Assembly (NCBI RefSeq): GCF_000826145.2
Contig: NZ_LN651337.1
Coordinates: 189,774-253,773, forward strand
DNA: 64,000 nt
Direction of reading: 5' to 3'
Source: Sporosarcina koreensis
GTDB lineage: Bacteria; Bacillota; Bacilli; Bacillales_A; Planococcaceae
Position 1 is the stretch's first letter. Each line of letters starts with the position of its first letter. Shown piece after piece: positions 42,367-61,737 of the stretch. The translations under genes were made by a program, and so were the position numbers. The notes under the pieces are model-generated. The model did not search any database, was not told the origin of the DNA, and saw only the letters and a list, made by a program, of their open reading frames with translations.

Positions 42367-42509
42367 CGCTCCATTCTGCCGGCTAAGCGATCCATTCACC
42401 CGGTTAACCGTTCATTTTGACTGGCGAAGCGATCCATTCCCCAGGCTCCATTCCGCTGCCCGACCGCTCCATTCCCGCGGCAAAACAGCCGAGCCAAACC
42501 CTCTCCATT
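42367..42509 (+). repeat. Short-motif periodic array 1 (CG(C/A)TCCATT units)
   Basis: Seven copies of CG(C/A/T)TCCATT or close variants start at 42367, 42388, 42409, 42430, 42444, 42465 and 42501. Four intervals are exactly 21 bp; one is 14 (a loss of 7) and one 36. The intervening sequence is not conserved. Read on the other strand the unit is AATGG-A(G/T)CG. It lies directly after the pheST terminator, between converging genes. Confidence 0.8.
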
Positions 42510-42556
42510 GCGCGATCAATAGAGACTCGTCAAATTAAAACCGAGATTGAATGGTG

Positions 42557-42582
42557 GGCTCCGCTGCGCTTCGCCTTTTCTG
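42557..42582 (+). repeat. Short repeat E shared with the segment at 61778
   Basis: GGCTCCGCTGCGCT-T-CGC followed by CTTTTCTGT is nearly repeated at 61778 (GGCTCCGCTGCGCT-C-CGC, ATTTCCTGT). Both copies sit beside a periodic array. Vocabulary resembles the minus strand of repeat copy A (CGCTGCGCTTCCTG), so it may be a remnant of that family. Confidence 0.5.
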
Positions 42583-42623
42583 TTGGTGAGCAGCAGGGCA
42601 GGAAGTGTCCATTGCTAGGGGAG

Positions 42624-42774
42624 CGCTCAAGAAGGGGCCGGAACGCTCAAGAGACGGGCAGAAACGATCAAGTTTCCGTCGAAACGCTCAAGCAACATAG
42701 GAAACGCTCAAGCAAGCAGCAAGTCGCTCAAGTGGGTCACTCACGCGCTCAAGCATACCTTACAAGCGCTCAAG
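42624..42774 (+). repeat. Short-motif periodic array 2 (CGCTCAAG units)
   Basis: Eight copies of CGCTCAAG (one CGATCAAG) start at 42624, 42644, 42665, 42685, 42705, 42725, 42746 and 42767, so every interval is 20 or 21 bp. The 12-13 nt between cores differ, apart from a frequent GAAA just before the core. On the other strand the unit is CTTGAGCG. It ends about 20 bp before the rnhC terminator. Confidence 0.85.
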
Positions 42775-42792
42775 CCCCCGACATAATCCCCG

Positions 42793-42824
42793 AAAAAACC
42801 CGCGCGGGCGATCGTCACCCGCGC
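42793..42824 (-). terminator. rnhC terminator
   Basis: On the minus strand GCGCGGGTGA pairs with CGCCCGCGCGGG-type sequence, followed by TTTTTT. The stem includes the last rnhC codons. Confidence 0.7.
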
Positions 42825-43756
42825 TTCTTCGCCGCCAGCACCGCCGCTTTCTTCGCATTGGCAAAGTGCCATTTCGTCATCGACTTCAAAAACGGCTCAC
42901 CTTTCGCCAGCAAAATAGCCGCAGCCGTTTCATCCACCTTCTTCCCGGCGCCTTTCGGCAGCGTGCGGCCGGAGAGCCCGCTCAAGCGGTCCATTTCTTC
43001 CAGGAACGCGACCCGGGCGATGATCGACGCTGCCGCCACCGCGACGTGCAGGCCTTCCGCTTTCGTTGCGAACAACACCTTCTCCCGCACGATCTCCGGC
43101 TCGGCTTTCAAATGGTTGTAGTACACACCGCGCTCCGCGAACTGGTCGATGAGGATGCAGTCCGGGTGCTCGCCGTCCAGTTTGCGCAGCACGTGGCGGA
43201 TCGCCTGGTTGTGGAGGAGAGCCTTAATCTTCCCTTGCGACCAGCCTTTCTGCTGGACGGTATTATATTTCTCATTTTTCAGCGTCAGCACGCTGTACGT
43301 GAGCGCCTTCTTCAGATCCGGCGCAATCGTACGCATGTACGGATCGGTCAGCTGCTTAGAGTCCTTGACGCCGAGCTCTTCGACAAGCGCGATCTGATCG
43401 GCGCGCACGTAGCAGGCGCAGACGGTCACCGGGCCGAAGAAATCACCTGTACCCGTTTCATCCGAGCCGATGACCGACAGCGAGCTGAGATTCTCCGGCA
43501 GCGCATCCGCATGCCGGGCCGGTTTCTTCGCATGTCCGGGAACCGGCGCAGCGGAATCTTCCCACTTCGCCGCCTCCGCAGCAGCACCGCCGCCCTGGAA
43601 CAGCACCTTGCCCGACTTATAGGCCGTGATCGACGCATCCGCCGTCTTCGCCGCAAACACCACCCCCGGCGCTTTGCGCGTCACCTTATCGGATTGATAA
43701 TACGCTTGCAGCTCCTTCATCCGAGCTGCATCCAGCAACACTACATTATTCGACAT
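42815..43756 (-). CDS. rnhC: Ribonuclease HIII
   Basis: 313 aa. Cleaves RNA in RNA-DNA hybrids. N-terminal TBP-like substrate-binding domain (residues 1-90), then the type 2 RNase H core: IGSDETGTGDFFGPVTVCA near 97-115 (catalytic Asp, Glu) and PDCILIDQFAE near 203 (Asp). The final segment GAGKKVDETAAAILLAKGEPFLKSMTKWHFAN is typical. It converges on pheST and is divergent from zapA; order matches B. subtilis, with orientation reversed relative to pheST. Confidence 0.93.
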   Translation of the reverse strand: MSNNVVLLDAARMKELQAYYQSDKVTRKAPGVVFAAKTADASITAYKSGKVLFQGGGAAAEAAKWEDSAAPVPGHAKKPARHADALPENLSSLSVIGSDETGTGDFFGPVTVCACYVRADQIALVEELGVKDSKQLTDPYMRTIAPDLKKALTYSVLTLKNEKYNTVQQKGWSQGKIKALLHNQAIRHVLRKLDGEHPDCILIDQFAERGVYYNHLKAEPEIVREKVLFATKAEGLHVAVAAASIIARVAFLEEMDRLSGLSGRTLPKGAGKKVDETAAAILLAKGEPFLKSMTKWHFANAKKAAVLAAKKRG

Positions 43757-43769
43757 ATTTATATTCTCC

Positions 43770-43786
43770 TTTCAACGATGTTGAAA
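43770..43786 (-). promoter_or_regulatory. Palindrome between rnhC -10 and ribosome site
   Basis: TTTCAAC-GAT-GTTGAAA is a perfect 7+3+7 palindrome. On the minus strand it directly follows a TATAAT and directly precedes AAAGGAG of rnhC, the position of an operator or of a 5' UTR hairpin. Confidence 0.5.
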
Positions 43787-43812
43787 TTATACTTACTTAA
43801 CTGACGATGCCA

Positions 43813-44001
43813 GTTGATTGTAGTGCAGGGTGGCGACTCCTGGGCAGCCTAAGACGCCGCGTCCTGCGGCAACGGCTGCATGACCAGCGTCCTGTTGGCC
43901 CGGGATCAGCGAAGGAAGCAACCTAAGTTCGCGGCACCGTGCCGCAACGGTTGAATGACCTGCATCCTGCAGGCCCGCGTCCGCCCGGAACGCAGATCAA
44001 C
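43813..44001 (+). repeat. Interspersed MITE-like repeat, copy B
   Basis: 189 bp from GTTGATTG to GATCAAC (inverted ends GTTGAT/ATCAAC). First 100 bp match the minus strand of copy C closely (GGCGACTCC, GGGCAGCCTAAGACGCCG, GTCCTGCGGCAACGGCTGCA, CCTGTTGGCCC). The inner part contains a second, diverged copy of its own GCGGCAACGG-type segment. No credible ORF. It lies between the rnhC and zapA promoters. Confidence 0.75.
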
Positions 44002-44106
44002 TTTGTCCAACTTGACTTCAGTTCCGTAACAAACACCAGACTTCCATTCTTCCGCATCCGCCCGCCGAACGCAAGCACAAAAATAACGGACAGACACCCC
44101 CTTTGT

Positions 44107-44135
44107 TCACAAATATTCCGCTTTCATGGTATGAT
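44107..44135 (+). promoter_or_regulatory. zapA promoter
   Basis: TTCACA (44107-44112), 17-bp spacer, TATGAT (44130-44135). Confidence 0.55.
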
Positions 44136-44168
44136 GGACTTCATAGTTTTGGGCAGGAGGTTATGACA

Positions 44169-44429
44169 GTGGAAGAAGGAGAAAAGACACGCATCACGGT
44201 CGACATCTACGGACAGACCTATACGATCGTCGGCTCGGACACGGCTGCCCACGTTCGCCAGGTGGCATCGCTGGTCGATGACCGTATGCGGGAGCTGCGC
44301 GCGCGGAATCCGTATCTCGATACGACCAAAGTCGCTGTACTGACAGCTGTCAACAGTGTACATGACTATTTGAAACTGCAAACTGAGAAAGAACTGCTGG
44401 AACAAGAATTGAAAAAGTTGAAGGGTTGA
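44169..44429 (+). CDS. zapA: Cell division protein ZapA
   Basis: 86 aa from GTG 44169. Cross-links FtsZ filaments at mid-cell. N-terminal [34 protein letters not shown] and the C-terminal coiled coil ([26 protein letters not shown]) match Bacillus ZapA (YshA). GTG is preferred because AGGAGG (44155-44160) is 8 bp away, against 2 bp for ATG 44163, and the protein then aligns with B. subtilis ZapA at its start. Confidence 0.9.
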
Positions 44430-44438
44430 CGGCTGCTC

Positions 44439-44978
44439 ATGTTAGATATACTCATACTATTCCTGCTGCTCGGGGGTCTCATCACCGGGTTCCGCAGAGG
44501 CCTGCTCGTGCAGGTGCTTCATATGACCGGATTCATCATTTCATTCATCGTCGCATTCGCCTATTACAAACAGCTTGCCGAGAAGTTTGTCCTCTGGATC
44601 CCGTATCCGGGAGTGACGGCCGAGTCGAAGCTCACGTGGGCGTTCGGGGAACTGGATCTCGACCAGACGTTCTATCGTCTGCTCGCGTTCATCCTGATCT
44701 TCTTCGCAGTGAAGTTCGTGCTGCAGCTGATCGTCTCGATGTTCGATTTCCTCAAATACTTGCCGGTGCTCGGCTTCATCTCCCGTTTTTTCGGGGCGGC
44801 ACTCGGATTTGTCGAATTCTACGTGATCATCCTGCTGCTCGTGGGTGTACTGGCGCTGCTGCCGGTCGACTTCATCCAGAAGCTGGTGAGTTCGTCGCTG
44901 CTGGCGAAGACCATGTTCGAACACACACCGTTGCTGTCCAATGCGGTGCAAAACTGGTGGTACGTCTATACGAAATAA
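44439..44978 (+). CDS. CvpA-family membrane protein (YshB-like)
   Basis: 179 aa with four hydrophobic segments. The N-terminus MLDILILFLLLGGLITGFRRGLLVQVLH is the CvpA family pattern. Role unclear; E. coli CvpA affects colicin V production and envelope integrity. Ten bp after zapA, same operon, conserved order. A hairpin terminator follows. Confidence 0.85.
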   Translation: MLDILILFLLLGGLITGFRRGLLVQVLHMTGFIISFIVAFAYYKQLAEKFVLWIPYPGVTAESKLTWAFGELDLDQTFYRLLAFILIFFAVKFVLQLIVSMFDFLKYLPVLGFISRFFGAALGFVEFYVIILLLVGVLALLPVDFIQKLVSSSLLAKTMFEHTPLLSNAVQNWWYVYTK

Positions 44979-44986
44979 TCTGGATC

Positions 44987-45018
44987 AGCTTCCCTCCCGT
45001 GCGGCGGGAAGCTTTTGT
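44987..45018 (+). terminator. zapA-cvpA terminator
   Basis: AGCTTCCC pairs with GGGAAGCT, inner CCG/CGG, then TTTTGTT. It may allow read-through into polX. Confidence 0.65.
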
Positions 45019-45054
45019 TCCGTCCGGGTACAGACAGTCAAAGGGGGATGCATT

Positions 45055-46761
45055 GTGAATAAGAAAGTGATCATACAAACTCTTGAACGTATCGCACTCT
45101 ATATGGAACTGCTCGGGGAGAACCCGTTCAAAGTGTCGGCATTCCGCAAGGCGGCCGGAGTGCTTGAGACGGACCCGCGCAGTCTCGCTGAAATGGACGA
45201 CATCCTGACGCTCAAAGGCATCGGAAAAGGGACCGGTGCCGTCATCGTGGACCTTCTTGCGAAAGGGAAGTCCGATTTGCTGGATGAACTGCAGGAAACC
45301 GTGCCGGCGGGGATGATTCCGCTGCTCGATATCCCGGGCCTCGGCGGCAAACGGATCGCAAAGCTGCATAAGGCGCTCGGCATCGACTCCATCGAATCGC
45401 TGAAGGAAGCATGCGAAACGAACAAAGTGAGCGAACTGCCTGGGTTCGGCAAGAAGACCGAAGAGAAGTTCCTGCACGAAATCGAACAGCTGTCGGAACG
45501 GAAGACGTCCTTCCCGCTCTGGCAGATGGAAGGGCTCGTCGCGTCCGTCGAGCCGGTGCTCGATGGCATCGGGGAGATCAGCAAATATTCCGTCGCCGGC
45601 AGCTACCGCCGGACGGCCGAACAGAGCAGCGACATGGATTTCATCCTCGTGACGGACACGCCCGGTGCCGTCCGGGAACAGCTTCTTGAACAGCTGCCGG
45701 TCCGCGAGACGATTGCAGCGGGTGACGCCAAACTCTCCGTGACACTCGATCTCGAAGAAGTGATCGATGTGGATTTCCGTTTCGTCACGGACGCCCAGTA
45801 TGCGAGCGCGCTCCATCATTTCACCGGATCGAAAGAGCATAATGTCGCCATGCGGCAGCTTGCGAAGTCACGGGGGGAGAAGATCAGTGAGTACGGCGTC
45901 GAGCAGGAGGACGGTTCCGTGCTGACGTTCGGATCCGAAGAAGACTTTTTCGCCCATTTCGGCCTGCCGTTCATCCCGCCCAACATGCGCCAGGACGGCC
46001 GCGAAATCGAGCGGGCGGACGAGCTCGGCGGACTGGTCACGCTCCGTGACATCCGCGGCGACTTCCATATGCATACGACCGCCTCGGACGGCGGCTATTC
46101 GATCCGCGAGATGGCGGACGCCTGCCGTGCGAAAGGCTACACGCATATGGTGATCACCGACCACTCGCACTATTTGAAAGTGGCGAACGGCCTGACACCG
46201 GAACGGCTGCTCGATCAGCTGAAAGAAATCAGGGAAATCAACGAAGAATACCCGGACATCGAAATCTTCAGCGGGACGGAAATGGATATCCTGCCGGACG
46301 GGACGCTCGATTTCGACGATGACGTGCTGTCGCAGCTCGACTTCGTCATCGCCTCGATCCACTCGAGTTTCAGCCAGCCGCAGGAGAAGATCATGGAGCG
46401 CCTCCATGCGGCCATAAAAAATCCGCATGTCGATATGGTCGCCCATCCGACAGGGCGCCTGATCGGCAAACGTCCCGGCTATGAGCCGGACGTGCCGCAG
46501 CTCATCGAATGGGCGGCCGAGTATGGAAAGATATTGGAACTGAATGCGAGCCCGCACCGGCTCGATCTGAACAAAGACTACTTGGAACTCGCCCAGTCGA
46601 AGGGCGTTCCGATTGCCATAAACACCGACGCCCATGCAACCGGCCAGCTGGATATCATGGCGATCGGCGTCGCCTACGCCCAGAAAGCGTGGCTGAAAAA
46701 AGACACCGTCGTCAATACGTGGCCGCTCGACCGGTTTAAACGGGAGATCGTCGATAAGTGA
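45055..46761 (+). CDS. polX: DNA polymerase/3'-5' exonuclease PolX
   Basis: 568-aa family X polymerase with a PHP nuclease, acting in gap repair. N-terminal HhH region (LTLKGIGKGTGAVIVDLL near 48), a second HhH (ELPGFGKKTEEKFLHEI), pol-beta palm GSYRRTAEQSSDMDFILV with catalytic DxD near 182-199, and C-terminal PHP domain with DFHMHTTASDGGYSIREMADACRAKG near 335 and IATNTDAH-like AINTDAHATGQLD near 520. GTG 45055 has AAAGGGGG upstream. Overlaps or abuts mutS2. Confidence 0.93.
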   Translation: MNKKVIIQTLERIALYMELLGENPFKVSAFRKAAGVLETDPRSLAEMDDILTLKGIGKGTGAVIVDLLAKGKSDLLDELQETVPAGMIPLLDIPGLGGKRIAKLHKALGIDSIESLKEACETNKVSELPGFGKKTEEKFLHEIEQLSERKTSFPLWQMEGLVASVEPVLDGIGEISKYSVAGSYRRTAEQSSDMDFILVTDTPGAVREQLLEQLPVRETIAAGDAKLSVTLDLEEVIDVDFRFVTDAQYASALHHFTGSKEHNVAMRQLAKSRGEKISEYGVEQEDGSVLTFGSEEDFFAHFGLPFIPPNMRQDGREIERADELGGLVTLRDIRGDFHMHTTASDGGYSIREMADACRAKGYTHMVITDHSHYLKVANGLTPERLLDQLKEIREINEEYPDIEIFSGTEMDILPDGTLDFDDDVLSQLDFVIASIHSSFSQPQEKIMERLHAAIKNPHVDMVAHPTGRLIGKRPGYEPDVPQLIEWAAEYGKILELNASPHRLDLNKDYLELAQSKGVPIAINTDAHATGQLDIMAIGVAYAQKAWLKKDTVVNTWPLDRFKREIVDK

Positions 46762-46778
46762 AAGGAAGGGATCCGTCC

Positions 46779-49136
46779 ATGGATTCACGGGTTTACCGAA
46801 CACTCGAATTTGATAAGGTGCTGACACAGGCCGCCGGATATACGACATTCCCGGCAGGCCGGGCAGCACTCGAGAAACTGGTGCCGAGCACCGATTTCGG
46901 AACGGTCGGCACACTGCTGGAAGAGACCGATGAAGGACTCGCCATCCTGCGCGTCCGCGGCAACGTGCCGATGGGCGGCATCACTGACGTCCGGCCGCAT
47001 GCCCGGCGCGCCCAGATCGGCGGTACGCTGAGTGCGCAGGAGCTGATGGAGACATCCTCGACCATCCGCGCAAGCCGGATATTCCGGCAGTTCATCGAAA
47101 GCCTCCAGCAGGAAGAAGAGCTTGACCTGAAGCATTTCCTGGCCATCAAGGAAGCGATGCCGATCATCACAGGGCTCGAACATGAAATCAACAGCGCGAT
47201 CGACGAGAACGGCCGGGTGCTCGACAGCGCATCCAGCGCCCTCCGTTCCGTGCGTCAGAGCCTCCGCATCCAGGAAGGCCGTGTGCGGGAGAAACTCGAG
47301 AGCATCACACGCGGCAGGAACGCAGCGACGATGCTGTCGGACAGCATCATCACGATCCGGAACGACCGGTTCGTCATCCCGGTGAAGTCGGAGTACCGCG
47401 GCCATTATGGCGGAGTCATCCATGATTCCTCCGCATCGGGCCAGACGCTCTACATCGAGCCGGACGCCGTCGTCCAGGCGAACAACGAAATCCGTGCCCT
47501 GAAGTCGAAAGAAAAGGAAGAGATCGAGAAGATCTTGCGGGAACTGTCCGCAAGCGTCCAGGAGCATGCCCATGACCTGTTCATCCTCGTCGACCAGCTC
47601 ATCCGGGTCGATGTCATCCTCGCCAAGGCGAAATACGGGCAGGCGAACCGCTGCACGAAGCCGGACGTCAACAACGATGGCTACCTGAAACTGACGAAAG
47701 CCCGTCACCCGCTGCTGCCGATGGACGAAGCGGTCGCGAATACGATCGAATTTGGCAATGATATCACGACGATCGTCATCACCGGACCGAACACGGGCGG
47801 GAAGACTGTCACATTGAAGACGGTCGGCCTCTGTGTCCTCATGGCACAGGCCGGCCTGCCGATCCCGGTGCTCGACGGCTCGGAGATCGCCGTTTTCGGT
47901 TCGGTTTTCGCCGATATCGGCGACGAACAGTCGATCGAGCAGAGCCTCAGTACGTTTTCGTCGCATATGGTCAACATCGTCGATATCCTGAAGAAATTCG
48001 ATTCGGACTCCCTCATCATCTTCGATGAACTCGGCTCCGGCACCGACCCGCAGGAAGGGGCGGCCCTCGCCATCTCCATTCTGGATGAAGTCCACGGAAC
48101 CGGCGCGAGGGTCATGGCGACGACGCACTACCCGGAACTGAAAGCATACGGCTACAACCGGAAAGGGGTCGCCAATGCAAGTGTCGAGTTCGATATCGAC
48201 ACGCTCAGCCCGACCTACCGGCTGCTGATCGGCGTGCCGGGGCGCAGTAACGCGTTCGAGATCTCGAAACGGCTCGGTCTCGGCGAGCACCTCATCAAAC
48301 GGGCGAAGACGTTCACCGGCACTGATCGCGGCGAAGTCGACTCGATGATCGCGTCACTCGAAGCGAGCCGCGTACAGTCCGAGAAAGACGCCGAAGAGAC
48401 GCACCGGCTGCTCAAAGAGACGGAACTGCTGAAAAAGGAACTCGCCGAAAAACTCGCCGAACAGGAAGAGATGAAAGACCGTCTGACCGAAAAGGCGAAG
48501 GAGAAAGCGAAGCGGATCGTCGATGACGCACGCCGCGAATCGGATGAAGTCATCAAAGACCTGCGTGCGCTCCGTATGACGGCAGGTGCAAACGTCAAAG
48601 AGCATGAACTTATCGAAGCGAGGAAACGGCTGGAAGGCGCTGCTCCGGCCCAGACGAAGAAGCAGGCGCCGAAGGCGAAAGCGGCGCCGCGTCCGCTTCA
48701 GGCAGGCGACGAAGTGAAAGTGCTCAGCTACGGCCAGAAAGGCACGCTCATGGAAAAGGTCTCCGATAAGGAATGGATCGTCCAGATCGGCATCCTGAAG
48801 ATGAAGCTCGACGAATCGGGACTCGAGTACGTCAAGCCGGAGAAAGAAAAGCAGACGAAAGCATCTGCGGCCGTCCGGGGACGTACCGAACATGTCAAAC
48901 TCGAACTCGACCTGCGGGGCGAGCGCTACGAAGACGCAATCCGCAGGACAGAGAAATACCTGGACGACGCACTGTTGTCGAACTATCATCAGGTCTCCAT
49001 CATCCACGGCAAAGGGACCGGCGCGCTCCGGCAGGGGATTCAGCAGATGCTGAAGAAGCATTCCCGCGTCAAAAGCTACCGGTTCGGAGACGCCGGGGAA
49101 GGCGGCCATGGCGTAACGGTCGTCGAACTGAAATAA
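46779..49136 (+). CDS. mutS2: Endonuclease MutS2
   Basis: 785 aa, the same length as B. subtilis MutSB. It lacks the mismatch-recognition domain; the MutS-type core and ATPase carry Walker A ITGPNTGGKTVTLKT near residue 328 and Walker B LIIFDELGSGTDPQEGAA near 408. A coiled coil follows (ETHRLLKETELLKKELAEKL). The C-terminal Smr domain (LDLRGERYEDAIRRTEKYLDD, then HGKGTGALRQGIQ) near 710-770 is the nuclease. Linked to anti-recombination and to resolving collided ribosomes. ATG 46779 with AGGAAGG 8 bp upstream is preferred to GTG 46758. Confidence 0.93.
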   Translation: MDSRVYRTLEFDKVLTQAAGYTTFPAGRAALEKLVPSTDFGTVGTLLEETDEGLAILRVRGNVPMGGITDVRPHARRAQIGGTLSAQELMETSSTIRASRIFRQFIESLQQEEELDLKHFLAIKEAMPIITGLEHEINSAIDENGRVLDSASSALRSVRQSLRIQEGRVREKLESITRGRNAATMLSDSIITIRNDRFVIPVKSEYRGHYGGVIHDSSASGQTLYIEPDAVVQANNEIRALKSKEKEEIEKILRELSASVQEHAHDLFILVDQLIRVDVILAKAKYGQANRCTKPDVNNDGYLKLTKARHPLLPMDEAVANTIEFGNDITTIVITGPNTGGKTVTLKTVGLCVLMAQAGLPIPVLDGSEIAVFGSVFADIGDEQSIEQSLSTFSSHMVNIVDILKKFDSDSLIIFDELGSGTDPQEGAALAISILDEVHGTGARVMATTHYPELKAYGYNRKGVANASVEFDIDTLSPTYRLLIGVPGRSNAFEISKRLGLGEHLIKRAKTFTGTDRGEVDSMIASLEASRVQSEKDAEETHRLLKETELLKKELAEKLAEQEEMKDRLTEKAKEKAKRIVDDARRESDEVIKDLRALRMTAGANVKEHELIEARKRLEGAAPAQTKKQAPKAKAAPRPLQAGDEVKVLSYGQKGTLMEKVSDKEWIVQIGILKMKLDESGLEYVKPEKEKQTKASAAVRGRTEHVKLELDLRGERYEDAIRRTEKYLDDALLSNYHQVSIIHGKGTGALRQGIQQMLKKHSRVKSYRFGDAGEGGHGVTVVELK

Positions 49137-49212
49137 TTCCTCTGAAAGTGAAACTTTTTGCAGACCCATCCGTAACCGATAGGATATCATCGTAAAAAAG
49201 GGGTCTGCACAC

Positions 49213-49626: not shown

Positions 49627-49654
49627 AACATCAGTACAGTGGAGACGATACTAA

Positions 49655-49741: not shown

Positions 49742-49769
49742 CGCATTCGCGTCGGACGTCTGCCTTTTC
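49728..49769 (+). terminator. Terminator after mutS2-yshE
   Basis: GGCAGAC (49728-49734) pairs with GTCTGCC (49758-49764), inner CGC/GCG, then TTTTCTTTT. Confidence 0.75.
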
Positions 49770-49785
49770 TTTTGGAAATCTGCAA

Positions 49786-53985: not shown

Positions 53986-54969
53986 ATGTCAAAAAATGTG
54001 TTAGTACTGGGCGAAACTCGCGAAGGCGAATTGCGGAACGTATCCTTTGAAGCCATAGCGGCGGCGAAGCAGATTTCAGGAGGCGGCACGATCACAGGCG
54101 TACTCATCGGGGAATCAGTGGAGAACCTTGCGCAGGACATGATCCAGCACGGGGCGGACCGTGTCGTCACTGTTGAGAATGCGGACTTGAAGCAGTATAC
54201 ATCCGACGGCTTCGGCCAGGCGTTCATGGCTGTCTATGAACAGGAAAAGCCGGAAGCCATCGTCATGGGGCATACAGCACTCGGGAAGGACCTCTCCCCG
54301 AAGATCGCAGCCAAACTCGGCTCGGGACTCATTTCGGATGTTACAACGATCGAAGGGGAAGGCGACGATGCGGAATTCATCCGCCCGATCTACTCCGGAA
54401 AAGCATTCGAGAAGGTCAAGAACAAAGAAGGACTGCTGTTCGTGACGATCCGTCCGAACAACATCGAACCGCTTGAGAAGGACGACAGCCGCTCTGGTGA
54501 CGTGTCATCCGTATCTGCGGACATCACGAACCTCCGCTCCGTCATCGCGGACGTCGTACGGAAAGCATCCGAAGGGGTCGACCTCTCCGAAGCGAAAGTC
54601 ATCGTAGCAGGCGGACGCGGCGTCAAGAGCGAAGACGGTTTTAAACCGCTCGAAGAACTCGCGGATCTGCTCGGCGGCGCAGTCGGCGCATCCCGCGGTG
54701 CGTGTGATGCGGACTACTGTGATTACTCGCTCCAGATCGGCCAGACAGGGAAAGTCGTCACGCCTGACCTGTACATCGCGGTCGGCATCTCCGGCGCGAT
54801 CCAGCACATGGCGGGTATGTCGAACTCCAAGATCATCGTCGCCATCAACAAAGATCCGGAAGCCAACATCTTCAAAGTGGCGGACTATGGAATCGTCGGC
54901 GACCTGTTCGACGTCATGCCGATCCTGATCGACGAAGTGAAGAAACTCAAAGCGGGTCAGACTGCATAA
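53986..54969 (+). CDS. etfA: Electron transfer flavoprotein alpha subunit
   Basis: 327 aa. FAD-binding C-terminal domain clear: [15 protein letters not shown] near 205, [44 protein letters not shown] near 232 and [23 protein letters not shown] near 285. Forms a heterodimer with EtfB; passes electrons to the quinone pool. Ends the fad cluster at a strong terminator. Confidence 0.95.
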
Positions 54970-54980
54970 TCACATTTCGG

Positions 54981-55021
54981 CAGGGCCTTCCATTTGTACT
55001 TGAATGGAAGGCCCTGTTTTA
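54981..55021 (+). terminator. fad-etf operon terminator
   Basis: CAGGGCCTTCCATT pairs with AATGGAAGGCCCTG, then TTTTA. Confidence 0.9.
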
Positions 55022-55149
55022 CCGGAGCGGATCCTGCAAGCGATCCATCCCGCAGGTGCTGTAAGCGCTATAAGCAGATTTTTCGCCTCGGGTGAATGTG
55101 CATGATATACTTGTTCCAGAGTTGTTACCTACAAAGGAGGAATTATCCA

Positions 55150-55464
55150 ATGGCTATTCTGAACGCTACTGATGCAGACTTTACTGAAAAGACAAGTGAA
55201 GGTGTCGTACTCGTTGACTTCTGGGCACCATGGTGCGGGCCTTGTAAGATGATCGCTCCGGTTCTTGAAGAATTGGACGGCGAAATCGAAGGCAAAGCGC
55301 AGATCGTGAAAGTGAACGTGGATGACAACCAGGGAACTGCAAGCAAATTCGGCATCATGTCGATCCCGACACTCCTCGTCATGAAAGACGGCGAAACTGT
55401 CGACAAAGTAGTCGGCTTCCGTCCGAAAGAGGAACTTGCAAAATTGGTTGACCAGCACGCATAA
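55150..55464 (+). CDS. trxA: Thioredoxin
   Basis: 104 aa. General disulfide reductant. Active site FWAPWCGPCKM at residues 26-36 and the conserved cis-Pro in MSIPTLLV near 73. AAAGGAGG upstream of ATG 55150. A TATACT at 55106-55111 may be its -10. Position between etfA and uvrC matches B. subtilis. Confidence 0.97.
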   Translation: MAILNATDADFTEKTSEGVVLVDFWAPWCGPCKMIAPVLEELDGEIEGKAQIVKVNVDDNQGTASKFGIMSIPTLLVMKDGETVDKVVGFRPKEELAKLVDQHA

Positions 55465-55479
55465 GCTTACTATCTCAAG

Positions 55480-55516
55480 ACCGGGTCCCTGTTCTCAGCG
55501 GAACCCGGTTTTTTTG
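55480..55516 (+). terminator. trxA terminator
   Basis: ACCGGGT pairs with ACCCGGT and is followed by seven Ts. Confidence 0.85.
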
Positions 55517-55533
55517 GCAGGTGACAGATAACC

Positions 55534-57336
55534 ATGAATGAATTGATCCAGCAGAAGCTCGCCATCCTTCCCGATGATCCCGGGTGCTATCTCATGAAAG
55601 ACAGGCAGGGCACCATCATCTACGTCGGTAAGGCGAAAGTGCTGAAAAACCGGGTCCGCAGCTATTTCACCGGATCCCATGACGCGAAAACCCAGCGGCT
55701 CGTCTCCGAAATCGAGGACTTCGAGTTCATCATCACGTCGTCCAACATCGAGGCGCTCATCCTGGAGCTGAACCTCATCAAGCAGTACGATCCGAAATAC
55801 AACATCATGCTGAAGGACGATAAGACGTATCCGTATCTGAAGCTGACCGCGGAACGCCATCCGAAACTGATCGTCACGCGGATCGTCAAAAAGGACAAAG
55901 GCCGCTATTTCGGTCCGTATCCGAACGTCACGGCAGCGACCGAGACGAAGAAACTGCTCGACCGGCTGTATCCGTACCGGAAATGCCATACGCTGCCGGA
56001 CCGGGTCTGCCTGTATTACCATATGGGCCAGTGCCTGGCGCCGTGCGTCTACGACGTATCGAAGGAGACGTACAAGGAGATGACCGACGACATCGCCCGG
56101 TTCCTGAACGGCGGCTATAAAGAAATGAAGAAAGAGCTCACCGTGAAGATGAATGCCGCTGCCGAGAACCTCGAATTCGAGCGGGCGACGGAGTACCGCG
56201 ACCAGATCACGAACATCGAAACGGTCATGGAGAAGCAGACGATGACGATGCACGATTTCAAGGACCGTGACATCTTCGGCTACGCCGTCGAAAAGGGCTG
56301 GATGTGCGTGCAGGTGTTCTTCGTGCGTCAGGGCAAGCTGATTGAGCGCGACGTCTCGCTGTTCCCGATGTACCAGGATCCGGAAGAGGAACTGCTGACG
56401 TTCATCGGCCAGTTCTACAGCAAAGCCGCGCACATCAAACCGAGCGAAGTGCTGCTGCCGCAGGATACCGACAAAGATCTTGTCGAGCAGCTGCTCGATG
56501 TGCACGCGTACATTCCGCAGCGGGGCAAGAAGAAGGATCTCGTGCAGCTCGCCAACAAGAACGCAGCGATTTCCCTGCGGCAGAAATTCCAGCTGCTCGA
56601 CCGGCAGGAGGAACGGACAGTCGGCGCCTGCGAGGAACTCGGCGATGCGATGAACATCTCCATCCCGCTGCGCATCGAAGCGTTCGACAACTCGCACACG
56701 CACGGCGTCGAGCCGGTATCGGCAATGGTATCGTTCGTTGACGGCAAGCCGAACCGGAAGGACTACCGGAAATACAAGACGAAGACGGCCGCAGCGCATG
56801 ATGACTACGGGGCGATGCGGGAAGTGATCCGGCGCCGGTACAGCCGCGTGCTGAAGGACGATCTCCCGCTGCCTGACCTGATCGTCATCGATGGCGGGAA
56901 AGGGCAGATGAACATCGCCCGCGAAGTGATCGAAGACGAGCTCGGCCTGTCGATCCCGATCGCCGGTCTCGCCAAGGACGAGAAACACCAGACCGCGAAC
57001 CTGCTGTACGGGTCGCCACCGGAACTGATCCCGCTGAAGCGCTCGAGCGAAGCGTTCTACCTGCTGCAGCGCATCCAGGACGAAGTGCACCGGTTCGCCA
57101 TCACGTTCCACCGGCAGCGGCGCCAGGCCGGCTCGCTCGTGTCCTCGCTCGATGGACTGCCCGGCGTCGGGCCGAAACGGAAGCAGAAGCTGCTCAAGCA
57201 CTTCGGCTCCGTCAAGAAAATTAAGGCCGCCACCACCGACCAGCTCATCGAAGCCGGCCTCCCGAAGTCCGTCGCCGAATCGGTGACAGAATATTTCACG
57301 GAGCAGGCGAAAGCGAAAGAGGAAGCGCAAGACTGA
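55534..57336 (+). CDS. uvrC: Excinuclease ABC subunit C
   Basis: 600 aa. Makes both incisions in nucleotide excision repair. N-terminal GIY-YIG nuclease ([32 protein letters not shown], residues 9-40), Cys-rich segment [21 protein letters not shown] near 153, UVR domain near 205, RNase H-like C-terminal nuclease ([33 protein letters not shown]) near 387-460, and tandem HhH end ([18 protein letters not shown]). Complete. lysC, next in B. subtilis, is absent. Confidence 0.96.
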
Positions 57337-57337
57337 C

Positions 57338-57364
57338 AACGGACCTGTGGCGGGTCCGTTTTTT
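57338..57364 (+). terminator. uvrC terminator
   Basis: AACGGACC pairs with GGTCCGTT around a 7-nt loop, then TTTT. Confidence 0.85.
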
Positions 57365-57390
57365 GTGCTGTGACGGGGGAGGGGCATGAG

Positions 57391-57537
57391 GAATTGAGCG
57401 ATTATGGTGAGGAAATGATCGGTCAGCACCAGCAATTGATCGCTTAGCGGTACTATATGATCGGTCAGCTGCAAGAATGGAGCGGTTCGCCGACTGAAAC
57501 GAGCGGTTCGCCGCTTGAATGGAGCGGTCCGTATCCT
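57391..57537 (+). repeat. Short-motif periodic array 3 (seven exact 21-bp units)
   Basis: Seven consecutive 21-bp units start at 57391, 57412, 57433, 57454, 57475, 57496 and 57517. Each has GAA or a variant, then TGA(G/T)CG or TGGAGCG, then (G)GT(T/C). The first four carry TTGAGCG/ATGATCG/TTGATCG; the last three (T/A)GGAGCG or ACGAGCG followed by GTTCGCCG-like sequence. It sits exactly between the facing terminators of uvrC and yslB. Confidence 0.88.
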
Positions 57538-57560
57538 GCAGCACTGCAACACCCGAACAC

Positions 57561-57592
57561 AAAAAACCGGAGAGGCCGCAAGCCCCTCCGGT
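57561..57592 (-). terminator. yslB terminator
   Basis: On the minus strand ACCGGAGGGGC pairs with GCCTCTCCGGT (one mismatch) around TTGCG, followed by TTTTTT. Confidence 0.85.
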
Positions 57593-57599
57593 CCATCCA

Positions 57600-58016
57600 T
57601 CAGTCACCTAAGTTATACGTCTCATCCCAGCGGACCTGCAAAACGATGCGGCCCGTGTCGGCGTCACGCGATCCATAACACTCGGTCAGGCAGCCGTTCG
57701 CGATCTGATGCTGCTCGGCGAGGAATCCGGATTCCAGGCTGAACGCATCCTCGGTCGCCGGCGACTCCAGCCGATCCGTCAATTCATAATCGATTTCCTC
57801 TTTGCCGGATGACACGCGCACGAGCGTCCCCCAGCCGGCTTCCTTGAAAAATTGGGGGACTTCATCCACCGAAAAAACAGGGAACTTGCGGGCGATCTCT
57901 TTGCCGGCCCAATACAGAATATCATCTTCATGCTTACCGAGGATATCCGGGATCACATGATCTCTCAGCAGCTCATAACCGAAGCGGGTCGGCTGTCCAG
58001 TGGTCTCGTTTGCCAA
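57600..58016 (-). CDS. yslB: DUF2507 protein (YslB-like)
   Basis: 138 aa. RFGYELLRDHVIPDILGKHEDDILYWAGKEIARKFP followed by QFFKEAGWGTLVRV, and ESGFLAEQHQIANGCLTECYGS near 97-118, fit the YslB/DUF2507 family, related to the V4R heme/ligand-binding fold. Function unknown. TTG 58016 is taken as start; AAAGGG is about 11 bp upstream. Neighbour of sdhC as in B. subtilis, divergently transcribed. Confidence 0.85.
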   Translation of the reverse strand: MANETTGQPTRFGYELLRDHVIPDILGKHEDDILYWAGKEIARKFPVFSVDEVPQFFKEAGWGTLVRVSSGKEEIDYELTDRLESPATEDAFSLESGFLAEQHQIANGCLTECYGSRDADTGRIVLQVRWDETYNLGD

Positions 58017-58104
58017 AACGCAAGCATCCCTTTCATCGTAATCTATTTACTATTTTAGAATAGCCTCAACATGCGGAAAAGACGCACCAAATAAGCGAGT
58101 CACC

Positions 58105-58133
58105 TTGACCTACCCAAAATGGAAGAGTACAAT
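58105..58133 (+). promoter_or_regulatory. sdhCAB promoter
   Basis: TTGACC (58105-58110), 17-bp spacer, TACAAT (58128-58133); gives a leader of about 105 nt before sdhC. Confidence 0.7.
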
Positions 58134-58243
58134 GTACATGTTATTATATTGTAACACGAAGAGACGGACCGTCAATCATTCGTTCGCAAACGTACGGCGA
58201 TGTACACACAATCCGGCTCATATATTAAGGGAGGGTAAATCAC

Positions 58244-58852
58244 TTGGTGAGAGAATCAGAGTTCTATTGGCGACGCCTGCATTCACTGCTCGGGATCATT
58301 CCGATCGGCCTGTTCGTGACGCAGCACTTGATCATCAACCATTTCGCAACAAGAGGTGTTGAATCATTCAACACAGCGGCACATTTCATTGAAAACCTGC
58401 CGTTCATCTATTTCCTCGAATGGTTCGTCATCTACATACCGCTCATGTTCCACGCGTTTTACGGAGTCTATCTTGCGTTCACTTCGAAAAACAACGTGCA
58501 GCGCTACGGCACGTTCCGTAACTGGATGTTCATGCTCCAGCGGATTTCAGGTGTATTCCTGGTCATCTTCATCGCATGGCACATCTACGAGACACGTATC
58601 CAGAAACTGTTCGGTACGGAAGTCAACTTCGACATGATGGCTGACATCCTGAGCAACCCGTTCATGATCGTGTTCTATGCACTTGGAATCATCGCAGCAA
58701 CGTTCCACCTGGCGAACGGTATCTGGTCATTCCTCGTTACTTGGGGACTTGCACAGTCACCGCGTTCCCAGCGTATCGTCTCTTATGTAACTATGATCTT
58801 TTTCGTTGTTCTGACGGTTATCGGTCTGCGTGCACTGTTCGCATTCGTCTAA
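58244..58852 (+). CDS. sdhC: Succinate dehydrogenase cytochrome b558 subunit
   Basis: 202-aa membrane anchor with five hydrophobic segments and several His in helices (RRLHSLLGIIPIGLFVTQHLIINHFATR; FHAFYGVYLAF; FIAWHIYETR; FHLANGIWSFLVTWG) that fit the two-heme Bacillus type. Menaquinone reduction site. TTG 58244 (GGGAGG 8 bp upstream) or GTG 58247 is the start. First gene of sdhCAB. Confidence 0.94.
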   Translation: MVRESEFYWRRLHSLLGIIPIGLFVTQHLIINHFATRGVESFNTAAHFIENLPFIYFLEWFVIYIPLMFHAFYGVYLAFTSKNNVQRYGTFRNWMFMLQRISGVFLVIFIAWHIYETRIQKLFGTEVNFDMMADILSNPFMIVFYALGIIAATFHLANGIWSFLVTWGLAQSPRSQRIVSYVTMIFFVVLTVIGLRALFAFV

Positions 58853-58895
58853 GAACAATTTTGTAATCATGTAAATTTTGAGGAGTGAAACAACT

Positions 58896-60644
58896 ATGTC
58901 AAAAGGCAGAGTGATTGTCGTAGGCGGCGGTCTCGCCGGACTTATGGCAACCATCAAGGCATCAGAAGAAGGCGTCGGAGTCGACTTGTTTTCCCTCGTA
59001 CCTGTTAAACGTTCCCACTCCGTCTGTGCCCAGGGCGGTATCAACGGTGCGGTGAATACGAAAGGGGAAGGCGACTCCCCATGGATCCACTTTGACGATA
59101 CGGTATATGGCGGGGACTTCCTGGCCAACCAGCCTCCGGTAAAAGCGATGGCGGACGCGGCACCGAGTATCATCCACCTGTTCGACCGGATGGGCGTCAT
59201 GTTCAACCGGACACCGGAAGGCCTTCTTGACTTCCGCCGTTTCGGCGGAACGATGCACCACCGTACGGCATATGCCGGCGCGACGACAGGCCAGCAGCTC
59301 CTGTATGCATTGGACGAGCAGGTCCGTGCACAGGAAGTCGCAGGTCTTGTGCAGAAGTATGAACACTGGGAATTCCTTGGTGTGGTACTTGACGAAGAAG
59401 GCATCTGCCGCGGAATCCGTGCGCAGGACCTCCGGACAATGGAAATCAAAGCATTCCCTGCGGATGCGGTCATCATGGCGACCGGCGGACCGGGAATCAT
59501 CTTCGGGAAGTCGACGAACTCGGTCATCAATACAGGATCGGCCGCTTCGATCGTCTATCAGCAGGGTGCGAAATATGCGAACGGCGAATTCATCCAAATC
59601 CACCCGACTGCGATTCCGGGAGACGACAAACTGCGTCTCATGAGTGAATCCGCACGTGGGGAAGGCGGACGGATCTGGACGTACAAAGACGGCAAGCCTT
59701 GGTACTTCCTCGAAGAGAAATACCCGGCATACGGTAACCTCGTGCCGCGGGATATCGCGACACGTGAGATCTTCGACGTCTGTGTGAACCAGAAGCTCGG
59801 CATCAACGGCGAGAACATGGTCTATCTCGACCTGTCCCATAAAGATCCGCATGAGCTTGACGTCAAACTCGGCGGCATCATCGAAATCTACGAGAAGTTC
59901 ACAGGCGAAGATCCGCGCAAAGTGCCGATGAAGATCTTCCCGGCAGTCCATTACTCAATGGGCGGACTGTGGGTCGACTACGAACAGCACACGTCCATCC
60001 CAGGATTGTTTGCGGCGGGTGAATGTGACTACTCACAGCATGGCGGAAACCGTCTCGGTGCGAACTCCCTCCTTTCTGCGGTATACGGCGGTATGCTCGC
60101 AGGACCGGAAGCCGTCAAGTACATGAAAGGTCTCAAGACATCTGCGGATGATCTGCCTTCCAAGATCTTCGACGACGCGGTCAAAGAAGAGCAGGACAAG
60201 TGGGATAAAATCATCAGCATGAAGGGGACCGAGAATGCATATGTCATTCACCGGGAACTTGGCGAGCTGATGACGGAGAACGTGACCGTTGTCCGGTACA
60301 ACGATCGTCTCGAGGCGACAGACAAGAAGATCCAGGAGCTCCTCGAGCGCTGGGAAAACATCGATATGACAGATACGCAGCAGTGGTCCAACCAAGGCGC
60401 AACGTTTACGCGTCAGCTGAAAAACATGCTATACTTGGCACGGGTCATCACACTCGGTGCCCTGAAACGTGACGAAAGCCGCGGCGCGCATTACAAGCCG
60501 GACTTCCCGGAACGTGACGACGAGAACTTCCTGAAAACGACGATTGCCCAGTTCGACGGAAAGTCCGCACCGATCATCTCTTACGAAGAGGTCGATACAT
60601 CCCTGATCCCGCCTCGTAAGCGCGACTATACGTCAGCCCACTAA
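58896..60644 (+). CDS. sdhA: Succinate dehydrogenase flavoprotein subunit
   Basis: 582 aa. Oxidises succinate to fumarate with covalent FAD. VIVVGGGLAGLMATIKASE (residues 6-24), flavin-linking His in KRSHSVCAQGGINGAVN near 41, active-site Arg in SESARGEGGRIWT near 252 and HYSMGGLWVDYEQHTSIPGLFAAGECD near 355. ATG 58896 follows GAGGAGTG. Middle gene of sdhCAB. Confidence 0.96.
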   Translation: MSKGRVIVVGGGLAGLMATIKASEEGVGVDLFSLVPVKRSHSVCAQGGINGAVNTKGEGDSPWIHFDDTVYGGDFLANQPPVKAMADAAPSIIHLFDRMGVMFNRTPEGLLDFRRFGGTMHHRTAYAGATTGQQLLYALDEQVRAQEVAGLVQKYEHWEFLGVVLDEEGICRGIRAQDLRTMEIKAFPADAVIMATGGPGIIFGKSTNSVINTGSAASIVYQQGAKYANGEFIQIHPTAIPGDDKLRLMSESARGEGGRIWTYKDGKPWYFLEEKYPAYGNLVPRDIATREIFDVCVNQKLGINGENMVYLDLSHKDPHELDVKLGGIIEIYEKFTGEDPRKVPMKIFPAVHYSMGGLWVDYEQHTSIPGLFAAGECDYSQHGGNRLGANSLLSAVYGGMLAGPEAVKYMKGLKTSADDLPSKIFDDAVKEEQDKWDKIISMKGTENAYVIHRELGELMTENVTVVRYNDRLEATDKKIQELLERWENIDMTDTQQWSNQGATFTRQLKNMLYLARVITLGALKRDESRGAHYKPDFPERDDENFLKTTIAQFDGKSAPIISYEEVDTSLIPPRKRDYTSAH

Positions 60645-60697
60645 GTGCCCGGCGTATCGCTGCACGATTATTCCGCATCGAAAGGAGACTGACGGAA

Positions 60698-61498
60698 ATG
60701 AGTGAACAACAAACCGCTGTCGCAGAAAAGACAGCACCCGGTAAAACAGTTATTTTCGAAATCCAGCGTCAGGATACACCTGAATCCGCGCCATACATGG
60801 AGTCTTTCGAAATCCCATATAAGCCTAACATGAACGTCATTTCCGCATTGATGGAAATCCGACGTAACCCGGTCAATTCGAAGGGCGAGAAAACTACACC
60901 GATCAACTGGGACATGAACTGTCTCGAGGAAGTATGCGGTGCCTGCTCGATGGTCATCAACGGCCGTCCGCGCCAGTCGTGTACAGCCCTCGTCGATCAG
61001 CTCACACAGCCGATCAAACTGGAGCCGATGCGCACATTCCCGGTTGTCCGTGACTTGATGGTCGACCGTGAAGGCATGTTCGACTCCCTCAAGAAAATCA
61101 AAGCATGGGTTCCGATTGACGGAACGTACGATCTCGGTGAAGGTCCCCGTATGCCGGAGCGCAAGCGCCAGTGGGCATACGAGCTGTCGAAATGCATGAC
61201 ATGCGGCGTCTGCCTCGAGGCATGCCCGAACGTCAACGACTCGACAAACTTCATGGGGCCGTTCGCGATTTCGCAAGTCCGCCTGTTCAACACGCATCCA
61301 ACTGGCGCGAAGAACAAAGATGAGCGTCTCGCAGCGTTGATGACAGACGGAGGCCTCGCCGAGTGCGGGAACTCCCAGAACTGTGTCGTGGCTTGCCCGA
61401 AAGGTATTCCATTGACGACGTCCATCGCATCCATGAACCGTGCAACAACGGTTCAGATGTTCAAGAACTTCTTCGGAAGCGACCATATGGTGGACTGA
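60698..61498 (+). CDS. sdhB: Succinate dehydrogenase iron-sulfur subunit
   Basis: 266 aa. Three clusters: 2Fe-2S from CLEEVCGACSMVINGRPRQSC near residues 75-95, 4Fe-4S from CMTCGVCLEACP near 167, and 3Fe-4S/4Fe-4S from CGNSQNCVVACPKGIP near 223. An N-terminal extension of about 20 residues is unusual but modest. AAAGGAG upstream. Ends the operon. Confidence 0.96.
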   Translation: MSEQQTAVAEKTAPGKTVIFEIQRQDTPESAPYMESFEIPYKPNMNVISALMEIRRNPVNSKGEKTTPINWDMNCLEEVCGACSMVINGRPRQSCTALVDQLTQPIKLEPMRTFPVVRDLMVDREGMFDSLKKIKAWVPIDGTYDLGEGPRMPERKRQWAYELSKCMTCGVCLEACPNVNDSTNFMGPFAISQVRLFNTHPTGAKNKDERLAALMTDGGLAECGNSQNCVVACPKGIPLTTSIASMNRATTVQMFKNFFGSDHMVD

Positions 61499-61511
61499 TC
61501 CCCGCCAGTCC

Positions 61512-61556
61512 AACACCCGGATTGCCAGCTGTTCGCTGGCCGTCCGGGTGTTTTTT
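61512..61556 (+). terminator. sdhCAB terminator
   Basis: AACACCCGG pairs with CCGGGTGTT, with inner GCCAGC/GCTGGC, then T run. Confidence 0.9.
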
Positions 61557-61585
61557 CTTTCGTTGAATGGGGGCAAGGCGGCCTG

Positions 61586-61737
61586 CGCTCATAAACCGGG
61601 TCATTCCGCTCATAAAAAAGAGTTTTTGCTCATAAATCCCGGAATCTGCTCATAAAAAGCGATTACCGCTCATAAATCTCCAGTAGTGATCATTAAACTA
61701 AAATAGCGCTCATAAACTTGTCCAAACCGCTCATAAA
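61586..61737 (+). repeat. Short-motif periodic array 4 (CGCTCATAAA units)
   Basis: Eight copies of (C/T)GCTCATAAA (one TGATCATTAA) start at 61586, 61607, 61627, 61647, 61667, 61687, 61707 and 61728; all intervals are 20 or 21 bp. Spacer bases are unrelated. Other-strand unit: TTTATGAGCG. It starts about 30 bp after the sdh terminator. Confidence 0.87.

What the first reader, a model, noticed from the sequence alone, without database searches (positions are those of the whole stretch)
42367..61737. A family of four 20-21 bp periodic short-motif arrays beyond operon terminators
Seen: arrays at 42367-42509, 42624-42774, 57391-57537 and 61586-61737 hold 7, 8, 7 and 8 units. All share a GA(G/T)CG core on one strand (AATGG-A(G/T)CG, CTTGAGCG, TTGA(G/T)CG/TGGAGCG, TTTATGAGCG). 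Intervals are 20 or 21 bp almost throughout, about two helical turns. Each array has its own flank variant, while the 12-13 nt spacers have drifted, so the core and phase look conserved rather than recently duplicated. All four lie just past an intrinsic terminator, and three lie between converging genes. Inference: a phased protein-binding array (nucleoid, topology or transcription barrier), or a structured RNA 3' of operons. I cannot assign it to a described family.
Basis: partly seen in the sequence, partly recalled or inferred. Interest (0 to 1): 0.88.

Follow-up and report, generated by a model that had tools for sequence, protein, structure and literature searches.

The report
Helix-phased repeat arrays behind genes
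Just past the ends of many genes this bacterium carries short DNA repeats set almost exactly two turns of the helix apart, and related species keep such an array at the same place while changing its letters, which suggests that the spacing, more than the exact sequence, is what the cell needs.

Summary
The four arrays are real and belong to a genome-wide system in Sporosarcina. In 864 kb of the same genome, chains of repeated 6-mers occur at 20-21 bp (33, all intergenic), 40-41 bp (14, intergenic) and 51-54 bp (6); every other 2-bp band from 8 to 61 bp gives 0-1, none intergenic. At least six unit classes share the 20-21 bp period. AT content repeats every ~10 bp in 7 of 12 sets tested. Arrays sit past gene 3' ends: 14 of 28 convergent gaps, 15 of 173 co-directional, 2 of 79 divergent. 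A letter-free score finds an array behind uvrC in 7 of 23 readable relatives and behind pheT in 15 of 25, with different unit classes at the same place. Unit number changes by whole units between strains. An IS110-family element sits in a class III unit in 5 of 5 copies found. Best reading: a phased DNA-level binding or wrapping platform at gene ends, working like BIMEs but not a member of that family; the protein is unknown. Rivals: selfish tandem repeats, Rho-type backup terminators, structured RNA. An early claim of perfect replication-strand segregation is retracted; the bias is about 75-80%.

The parts
42307..42343 (+). intrinsic terminator of pheT, directly before array 1
   Evidence: inverted repeat AAAAGCGGAACGGG/CCCGTTCCGCTTTT plus T run
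42367..42509 (-). array 1, class II (GAATGGA[G/T]CG), 7 units, partly irregular spacing (36,21,14,22,20,21)
   Evidence: counted by hand
42531..42620 (.). linker module M (GGGCTCCGCTGCGCTTCGCCTTTTCTG...) between arrays 1 and 2; similar modules lie between tandem class II/III arrays elsewhere; limits approximate
42624..42774 (-). array 2, class I (GCTTGAGCGTTTC), 8 units here, 9 in the second strain G075
42793..42824 (-). terminator of the facing gene rnhC, directly before array 2 on the - strand; approximate limits
   Evidence: GCGCGGG..CCCGCGC GGGTTTTTT on - (by eye)
57339..57364 (+). uvrC terminator, before array 3
   Evidence: ACGGACC..GGTCCGT plus T run (by eye)
57391..57537 (+). array 3, class II, 7 cores at exactly 21 bp; in relatives this place holds class II, I or III arrays
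61512..61556 (+). sdhB terminator, before array 4
   Evidence: inverted repeat I1, T run
61586..61737 (-). array 4, class III (TTTATGAGC[G/A], one TTTAATGATCA unit), 8 units
61755..61815 (.). linker/hairpin module M copy next to array 4 (GCTTGCCGGCTCCGCTGCGCTCCGCATTTCCTGTGG); limits approximate

Best explanation
The arrays are DNA-level, helically phased protein-binding or wrapping platforms behind transcription units. Each unit puts a ~10-bp core (GAGCGG-like, TATCGGACA-like and others) on the same face of the helix every two turns, and in many classes AT-rich DNA once per turn, so that some 8 units (~160 bp) can be coated, bent or wrapped by one factor. Placed past terminators, most densely between converging genes, the platform would hold the transcription-driven topology there, or stop read-through, as BIMEs are thought to do in enterobacteria. 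Because geometry matters more than letters, the unit class can turn over while the place and the phase stay. Shown: spacing, 3'-end location, cores kept over spacers within a genome, AT/GC rhythm in 7 of 12 sets, class swap at two conserved places, unit-number change. Inferred: that a protein binds, that it wraps or bends DNA, and the topological role. A known wrapper such as DNA gyrase is possible but untested; a sequence-specific nucleoid protein is at least as likely because many core columns reach about 2 bits.
For: Spacing: chains of identical 6-mers in 2-bp bands from 8 to 61 bp over 864 kb: 33 of 33 at 20-21, 14 of 14 at 40-41 and 4 of 4 at 52-53 are intergenic; every other band has 0 or 1 chain and none intergenic; six arrays with the wider band 51-54. 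Intergenic same-6-mer distances peak at 20, 21, 40-42, 51, 52, 60-61, 81, 84, 103-104. AT/GC power at the second harmonic (10.0-10.5 bp) exceeds column permutation in 7 of 12 sets (p 0.001-0.035), Fisher 2.9e-8 if the sets were independent. In class III A units of the own genome two spacer columns are A or T in 48 of 53 (29 T, 19 A) and 46 of 53 (26 T, 20 A). Location: array in 14/28 convergent, 15/173 co-directional, 2/79 divergent gaps of 150 bp or more. Sites differing between two strains: core 4 of 1540, spacer 9 of 1406, flank 18 of 1648. Place kept, class swapped, behind uvrC (7 of 7 readable close relatives) and pheT (15 of 25 genomes); a letter-free 20-21 bp score separates exactly these from the rest: uvrC 10.9-15.0 against at most 7.8, pheT 12.8-27.0 against at most 7.0.
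Against: No binding protein found. Highly conserved cores argue against pure geometry. Classes I (p 0.26), II (0.10), VI (0.08), G050/G069 (0.80) and G038 (0.29) show no significant 10-bp rhythm; five of the 12 sets are single arrays. Of four other-genus arrays three do not have it as top harmonic. Unit number is not kept between strains. Arrays are dispensable at each place: absent behind uvrC in 16 of 23, behind pheT in 10 of 25 (one a relic), behind sdhB in 17 of 19. The core-versus-spacer contrast between strains is small (4 against 9), and 9 of the 18 flank changes come from one locus, L197. Convergent enrichment could come from selection against insertion near promoters. Wedge-model curvature is not raised for class V (z -0.3).
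Confidence: 0.5

Rival explanations
1. Selfish or neutral tandem repeats: a dispersed non-autonomous element (array plus linker M) spreads by an unknown enzyme and grows by slippage or unequal exchange; it survives past terminators because insertion elsewhere is harmful, and it has no host role.
For: Common head TTGTGAAGTTATGAGCG in many class III arrays, linker M between tandem arrays, patchy distribution in the genus, whole-unit copy changes between strains, near-perfect tandem arrays in some species (L130; G009), avoidance of divergent gaps.
Against: Arrays with drifted spacers still keep cores; the same place carries different classes in different species; slippage does not predict near whole-turn periods only or an AT patch kept without its letters.
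Confidence: 0.27
2. Rho-type backup terminators: read-through RNA carries C-rich, G-poor repeats spaced for Rho loading, which explains a fixed orientation to the upstream gene.
For: In co-directional gaps 12 of 14 arrays have the core antisense to the upstream gene; the strand opposite the core is C over G by 0.05-0.17 against -0.03 in 117 array-free 3' flanks, YC 11.6-25.9 against 10.9 per 100 nt.
Against: RNA loading does not need 20-21 bp phase or a 10-bp AT rhythm; the G050/G069 (GTTTCGAAGTTG) and G112 arrays are, by eye, not C-rich on the sense strand; YC of class III (13.7) and of the TTTATGCG class (11.6) is only slightly above background.
Confidence: 0.13
3. A structured or repeat-bearing RNA in 3' UTRs.
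For: Fixed orientation to the upstream gene in 12 of 14 co-directional cases; mean fold z of -0.4 to -2.2 in five of six class/strand sets.
Against: No common structure in the folds looked at and z 0.05 for the class I sense strand, no Rfam family at the arrays, arrays lie beyond the terminators, no pairing seen by eye between alternating units across species.
Confidence: 0.05

Closest known systems
BIME/REP elements of enterobacteria, with BIME-2 as strong gyrase sites (PMC6379681, passages read; PMC2817692, search listing only)
   Same: Intergenic, variable copy number, several classes; location past 3' ends and use as insertion-sequence targets (both recalled).
   Different: No palindromic hairpin units; here short direct cores at near whole helical turns and class swapping at conserved places.
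E. coli gyrase motif (PMC6379681, passages read)
   Same: Phased ~10-bp G/C variation over ~130 bp; gyrase attracted downstream of transcription units.
   Different: That motif is degenerate and symmetrical about a cleavage site; here cores are conserved and directional, rhythm 10.0-10.5 bp against 10.75.
Short heptamer direct repeats such as TAACTGA of Beggiatoaceae, cyanobacteria and Bacteroidetes (PMC4679880, abstract and passages read)
   Same: Up to hundreds of mostly intergenic short-motif direct repeats per genome with patchy taxonomy; some between stop codons in Microcystis.
   Different: 7-bp units, mostly before start codons in the Maribeggiatoa genome; no helical phasing in the passages seen.
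Iterons and other phased initiator/partition sites (recalled)
   Same: Direct ~20-bp repeats on one helix face bound by one protein.
   Different: Those lie at one replicon locus; these are dispersed, roughly 150 per genome by extrapolation.

Membership tests
REP/BIME | palindromic stem-loop units | tested here: not met
   direct repeats of short cores; no inverted pair with both arms inside any of the four arrays; mean fold z 0.05 to -2.2. The 51-54 bp arrays do hold an inverted pair
REP/BIME | extragenic, enriched at 3' ends / convergent gaps | tested here: met
   14/28 convergent, 15/173 co-directional, 2/79 divergent
Gyrase strong site | ~10-bp phased G/C content over ~130 bp | tested here: inconclusive
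   significant in 7 of 12 sets, not in classes I, II, VI, G050/G069 and G038
Gyrase strong site | gyrase binding/cleavage in vivo | not testable with these tools
   needs Topo-seq
VNTR/minisatellite | unit number differs between strains | tested here: met
   of 24 paired arrays, +20, +40 or -40 bp at 5 separate loci (window array 2, L189, L198, L208, L220; the L208 class II row repeats its neighbour), plus larger rearrangements at L184 and L217
VNTR/minisatellite | whole unit homogeneous, no privileged core | tested here: not met
   many core columns ~2 bits, most spacer columns 0.1-0.7 bits across the pooled units
CRISPR array | identical repeats of ~25-40 bp, unique spacers, cas genes | tested here: not met
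   20-21 bp units with degenerate cores at scores of dispersed loci; cas genes not searched
TAACTGA-type heptamer repeats | 7-bp units | tested here: not met
   period 20-21 bp
Rho utilisation site | C-rich, G-poor transcript strand with YC dimers | tested here: inconclusive
   C-G +0.05 to +0.17, YC 11.6-25.9 against 10.9 per 100 nt
Rfam RNA family | match to a covariance model | tested here: not met
   window 39000-64000 at E up to 1: only Bacillaceae-1 twice at 43836-43973, none at the arrays

The most novel reading that the evidence does not exclude
A new kind of chromosomal element: sequence-agnostic, helically quantised arrays. Selection keeps the number of helical turns between cores, the AT/GC rhythm and the place behind a gene, while the letters turn over like satellite DNA; each genome carries many classes. 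The arrays would act as mechanical or topological bumpers between transcription units, and some insertion sequences have evolved to home on them.
Probability: 0.35. Interest if true: 0.92.

Novelty: new variant of a known kind. Interest (0 to 1): 0.8.

Why it matters
It is not settled whether bacteria hard-wire topology control behind genes: in E. coli, gyrase attraction downstream of operons was reported not to seem hard-wired, while BIME-2 behave as transcription-independent strong sites (PMC6379681, passages). A genome with roughly 150 helix-phased arrays at gene ends (extrapolated from 43 in 864 kb), whose phase is kept while sequence changes, makes that question testable by deletion, half-turn shifts and occupancy mapping. 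It also offers a bacterial case of satellite-like turnover under a structural constraint.

Tried and rejected
Coding repeats: rejected, a 20-bp period breaks the frame and all 34 screened arrays lie outside predicted genes (own simple gene finder). Structured RNA and Rfam. Pairing between alternating A and B units: looked for by eye, not kept across species. Chi-like AGCGG reading (recalled motif): class I and B units mostly lack it. Perfect replication-strand segregation: first read, then withdrawn. That list shows 75 of 77 forward but only 25 of 93 reverse hits; in the loci I fetched, 0 of 75 forward and 39 of 63 reverse hits are missing from it. Loci L301-L316 and L323-L328 were largely chosen from it and are biased to + arrays, so the orientation tally (about 60:16) is not used. 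Less biased data: 23 of 31 own-genome class I-III arrays lie against the fork (p 0.011; the sampled contigs were placed in the right replichore by a few anchor points to G075), and 18 of 22 listed forward clusters of G075 lie in the left replichore (p 0.004); the leading-strand share of genes in the same sample is similar (551 of 745). One search (G036) listed forward hits only and is uninformative. Piscibacillus locus L415: not an array. Wedge-model curvature used parameters recalled from memory and is weak evidence because any phased repeat tends to score high. Random stretches of other genera (73 kb in ten loci, one of them Sporosarcina): no array of 5 or more units by the screen, about 2-3 expected at own-genome density; too small to conclude.
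Full report
Where it is. The window is G000:C4:189774-253773 of a 2.91-Mb genome. G075 is a single-contig genome of the window's own species.

Observation. The four arrays exist and exceed chance. Arrays 2 and 4 have 8 units, array 3 has 7 cores at exactly 21 bp, array 1 has 7 with irregular spacing. Each lies just behind a hairpin with a T run: array 1 behind pheT, array 2 behind the facing rnhC, array 3 behind uvrC, array 4 behind sdhB. The names rnhC and sdhB fit Pfam matches; pheT and uvrC are recalled, not tested.

Genome-wide. TTATGAGCG occurs 178 times in the genome against 10 for the pattern read backwards. In 864 kb (window plus 40 stretches of 20 kb) a class-based finder gave 31 arrays: I 9, II 4, III 18. 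An unbiased screen for any 6-mer repeated at least 4 times at 19-22 bp gave 34 arrays, all outside predicted genes, against 3, 1 and 1 at spacings 15-18, 23-26 and 27-30. Six of the 34 are further classes: IV GGAACGGGCGGGTTCCC (1), V GTATCGGACAGTTCGCC (4), VI GAATACGCGCGGCCC (1). Both finders together give 37 arrays, plus six 51-54 bp arrays with unit TTAATTGCACGAAG...CTTCGTGCAA: 43 in 864 kb, about 150 per genome by extrapolation.

Near whole helical turns. By spacing band from 8 to 61 bp, chains appear at 20-21 (33), 40-41 (14) and 52-53 (4), all intergenic; all other bands have 0 or 1, none intergenic. Many of the 40-41 chains are probably alternating units of the same arrays. The distance histogram of repeated 6-mers in 160 kb of intergenic DNA has its strong peaks at 20-21, 40-42, 51-52, 60-61, 81, 84 and 103-104, close to 2, 4, 5, 6, 8 and 10 turns; distance 9 (123 against a usual ~50) is also raised and 15, 19, 30 and 39 slightly. 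Class III spacing is 20 in 92 of 114 intervals, I has 27 of 20 and 26 of 21 among 55, II is 21 in 19 of 21.

Anatomy. Unit profiles: I TGCTTGAGCGTTTC, II GGAATGGAGCGGTT (B form GGAATTGATCGCTT), III GTTTATGAGCGGAA (B form TTTATGATCACTTTCC), IV GGAACGAGCGGGTT, V GTATCGGACACTT. Many core columns carry about 2 bits, most spacer columns 0.1-0.7; these profiles pool both strains and, for IV and V, other species, and include loci picked for holding arrays. In the five classes profiled an AT patch precedes the GC core and a second one, in most cases weaker, follows about 10 bp on; in class III A of the own genome the second is A or T in 48 of 53 and 46 of 53 units with both letters common. The 10-bp harmonic of the AT/GC signal passes a column-permutation test in 7 of 12 sets (III, IV, V, TTTATGCG, G039, G040, G060), not in I, II, VI, G050/G069, G038; Fisher 2.9e-8 under independence, which holds only partly because some classes are related; five sets are single arrays. 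Of four other-genus arrays one (G210) has it as top harmonic.

Location. Own genome, gaps of 150 bp or more (own gene finder): arrays in 14 of 28 convergent, 15 of 173 co-directional, 2 of 79 divergent (Fisher 2.9e-8 and 0.003). In the G075 sample, partly chosen at arrays, the median distance to the nearest 3' end is 74 bp and 54 of 71 are within 160 bp. In co-directional gaps 12 of 14 own-genome arrays have the core antisense to the upstream gene; 23 of 31 point against the fork, no more than the gene-strand bias would give (551 of 745 genes leading). A stronger strand claim is withdrawn (see Tried and rejected).

Evolution. Two strains at about 99% identity in this region: 24 paired arrays. 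Unit number differs by 20 or 40 bp at five separate loci, including window array 2 (8 against 9 units); at L184 two arrays with their linker correspond to one, and at L217 the array head differs; a further locus, L204/L316, has 5 against 9 units. Substitutions over the 22 pairs that could be aligned: core 4 of 1540, spacer 9 of 1406, flank 18 of 1648, 9 of the 18 from one locus.

Same place, other letters. Behind uvrC, 25 genomes were fetched, 23 are readable (G049 and G065 are cut by contig ends): an array in 7 of 7 readable genomes with UvrC at 91% identity or more (G075 II; G062 II then I; G056, G036, G007, G009, G034 III) and in 0 of 16 others. Behind pheT, 25 genomes: 15 with arrays (G075 and G062 II+I; G056, G036, G034, G049, G007, G065, G009 class IV; G038 I; G039 CGCGCTCAAAG; G040 CGCGCCCAAAG; G060 CGCCAATAA; G050 and G069 GTTTCGAAGTTG), one relic (G037), 9 without. 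Several of these were first seen by eye, so I scored every spot with a letter-free measure of 19.8-21.2 bp periodicity: pheT 12.8-27.0 in the 15 and at most 7.0 in the other 10; uvrC 10.9-15.0 in the 7 and at most 7.8 in the rest; control periods at most 8.8. Behind sdhB, 19 genus members: only the own genome and L130 (finders only). At the pheT place in 20 members of other genera of the family: G080 (score 14.8) and G112 (9.8) have 20-21 bp arrays of new motifs; G210 has a 51-bp array alternating 21 and 30 bp, which scores at periods near 17 and 25.5 bp (13.2 and 11.2), not at 20-21 (7.2); G252 has one 1.3 kb away; the others score at most 8.4 at 20-21 bp. In 10 genomes of other families the finder found none and scores are at most 8.6. 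Among 299 Bacilli genomes TTTATGAGCG is strongly raised only in G000 (123 against 4); G039 (31 against 8), G055 (26 against 9) and, outside the genus, G246 (28 against 9) are weakly raised. Over the 68 genomes of the genus the 9-mer is strongly raised in some and at control level in many.

IS110. A 424-aa IS110-family transposase (PF01548 7.9e-32, PF02371) has 4 identical copies in G075 and one at 82% in G062 (5 genomes searched at E up to 1e-80; none in G000, G036, G009). All 5 lie inside a class III array in the same orientation, apparently split at the GC of TTTATGAGC|GGAA. IS110 elements are known for bridge RNAs (PMC11208160, search listing only); this one appears to read the array unit.

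How it works. I judge a phased DNA-binding platform most likely (0.5). Near whole-turn spacing in families with different letters, and an AT patch kept without its letters, point to DNA geometry. Conserved cores point to sequence-specific contacts as well. The setting behind terminators and between converging genes points to transcription-driven topology or read-through. The published E. coli gyrase motif (10.75-bp G/C rhythm over ~130 bp, gyrase drawn downstream of operons; PMC6379681, passages read) makes a wrapping enzyme one candidate, untested here.

What is not shown. No protein, no transcript data, no phenotype. The core-over-spacer contrast between strains rests on few events. The literature searches cover open-licence PubMed Central only; none listed these arrays, which does not prove that they are undescribed.

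Noticed in passing
window 43836-43973: Two tandem copies of the Bacillaceae-1 RNA (RF01690, 53.1 and 55.7 bits); the DNA around them (43811-44002) is a dispersed repeat with many hits in G075, G009 and G007.
   Followed up: no
L310 6500-8850 (about G075:C1:2131500-2133850) and L523-L527: IS110-family element inserted in class III array units, 5 of 5 copies found, same site and orientation.
   Followed up: yes
L192 13569, L193 4172 and 7443, L209 2161, L214 16773, L220 8144: Second array type with 51-54 bp period (about five turns) and an internal inverted pair such as TTGCACGAAG/CTTCGTGCAA, up to 14 units.
   Followed up: partly
L324 (G075:C1:2020001-2040000): Nine class II arrays within 20 kb among genes that include long, secreted-looking proteins, with GC skew opposite to most of the surrounding replichore.
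   Followed up: partly
L130 2381-2617 (G011, behind sdhB): Near-perfect 21-bp tandem array CGCTCATAGACCTTGGTATCG, 12 units, running off the contig end.
   Followed up: no
G075 1629591, 1635991 and 2024337: A further shared segment, CACAATTCGCGGACGGACGCGAATGG..GCACAGGCACCCTGG, precedes some class II arrays.
   Followed up: no
L122, L123, L138 downstream of sdhB: Another dispersed-looking intergenic repeat (CGTTCCGAGGGGCACGGATGGTGAGC.. type) at or near the place where the window has array 4.
   Followed up: no
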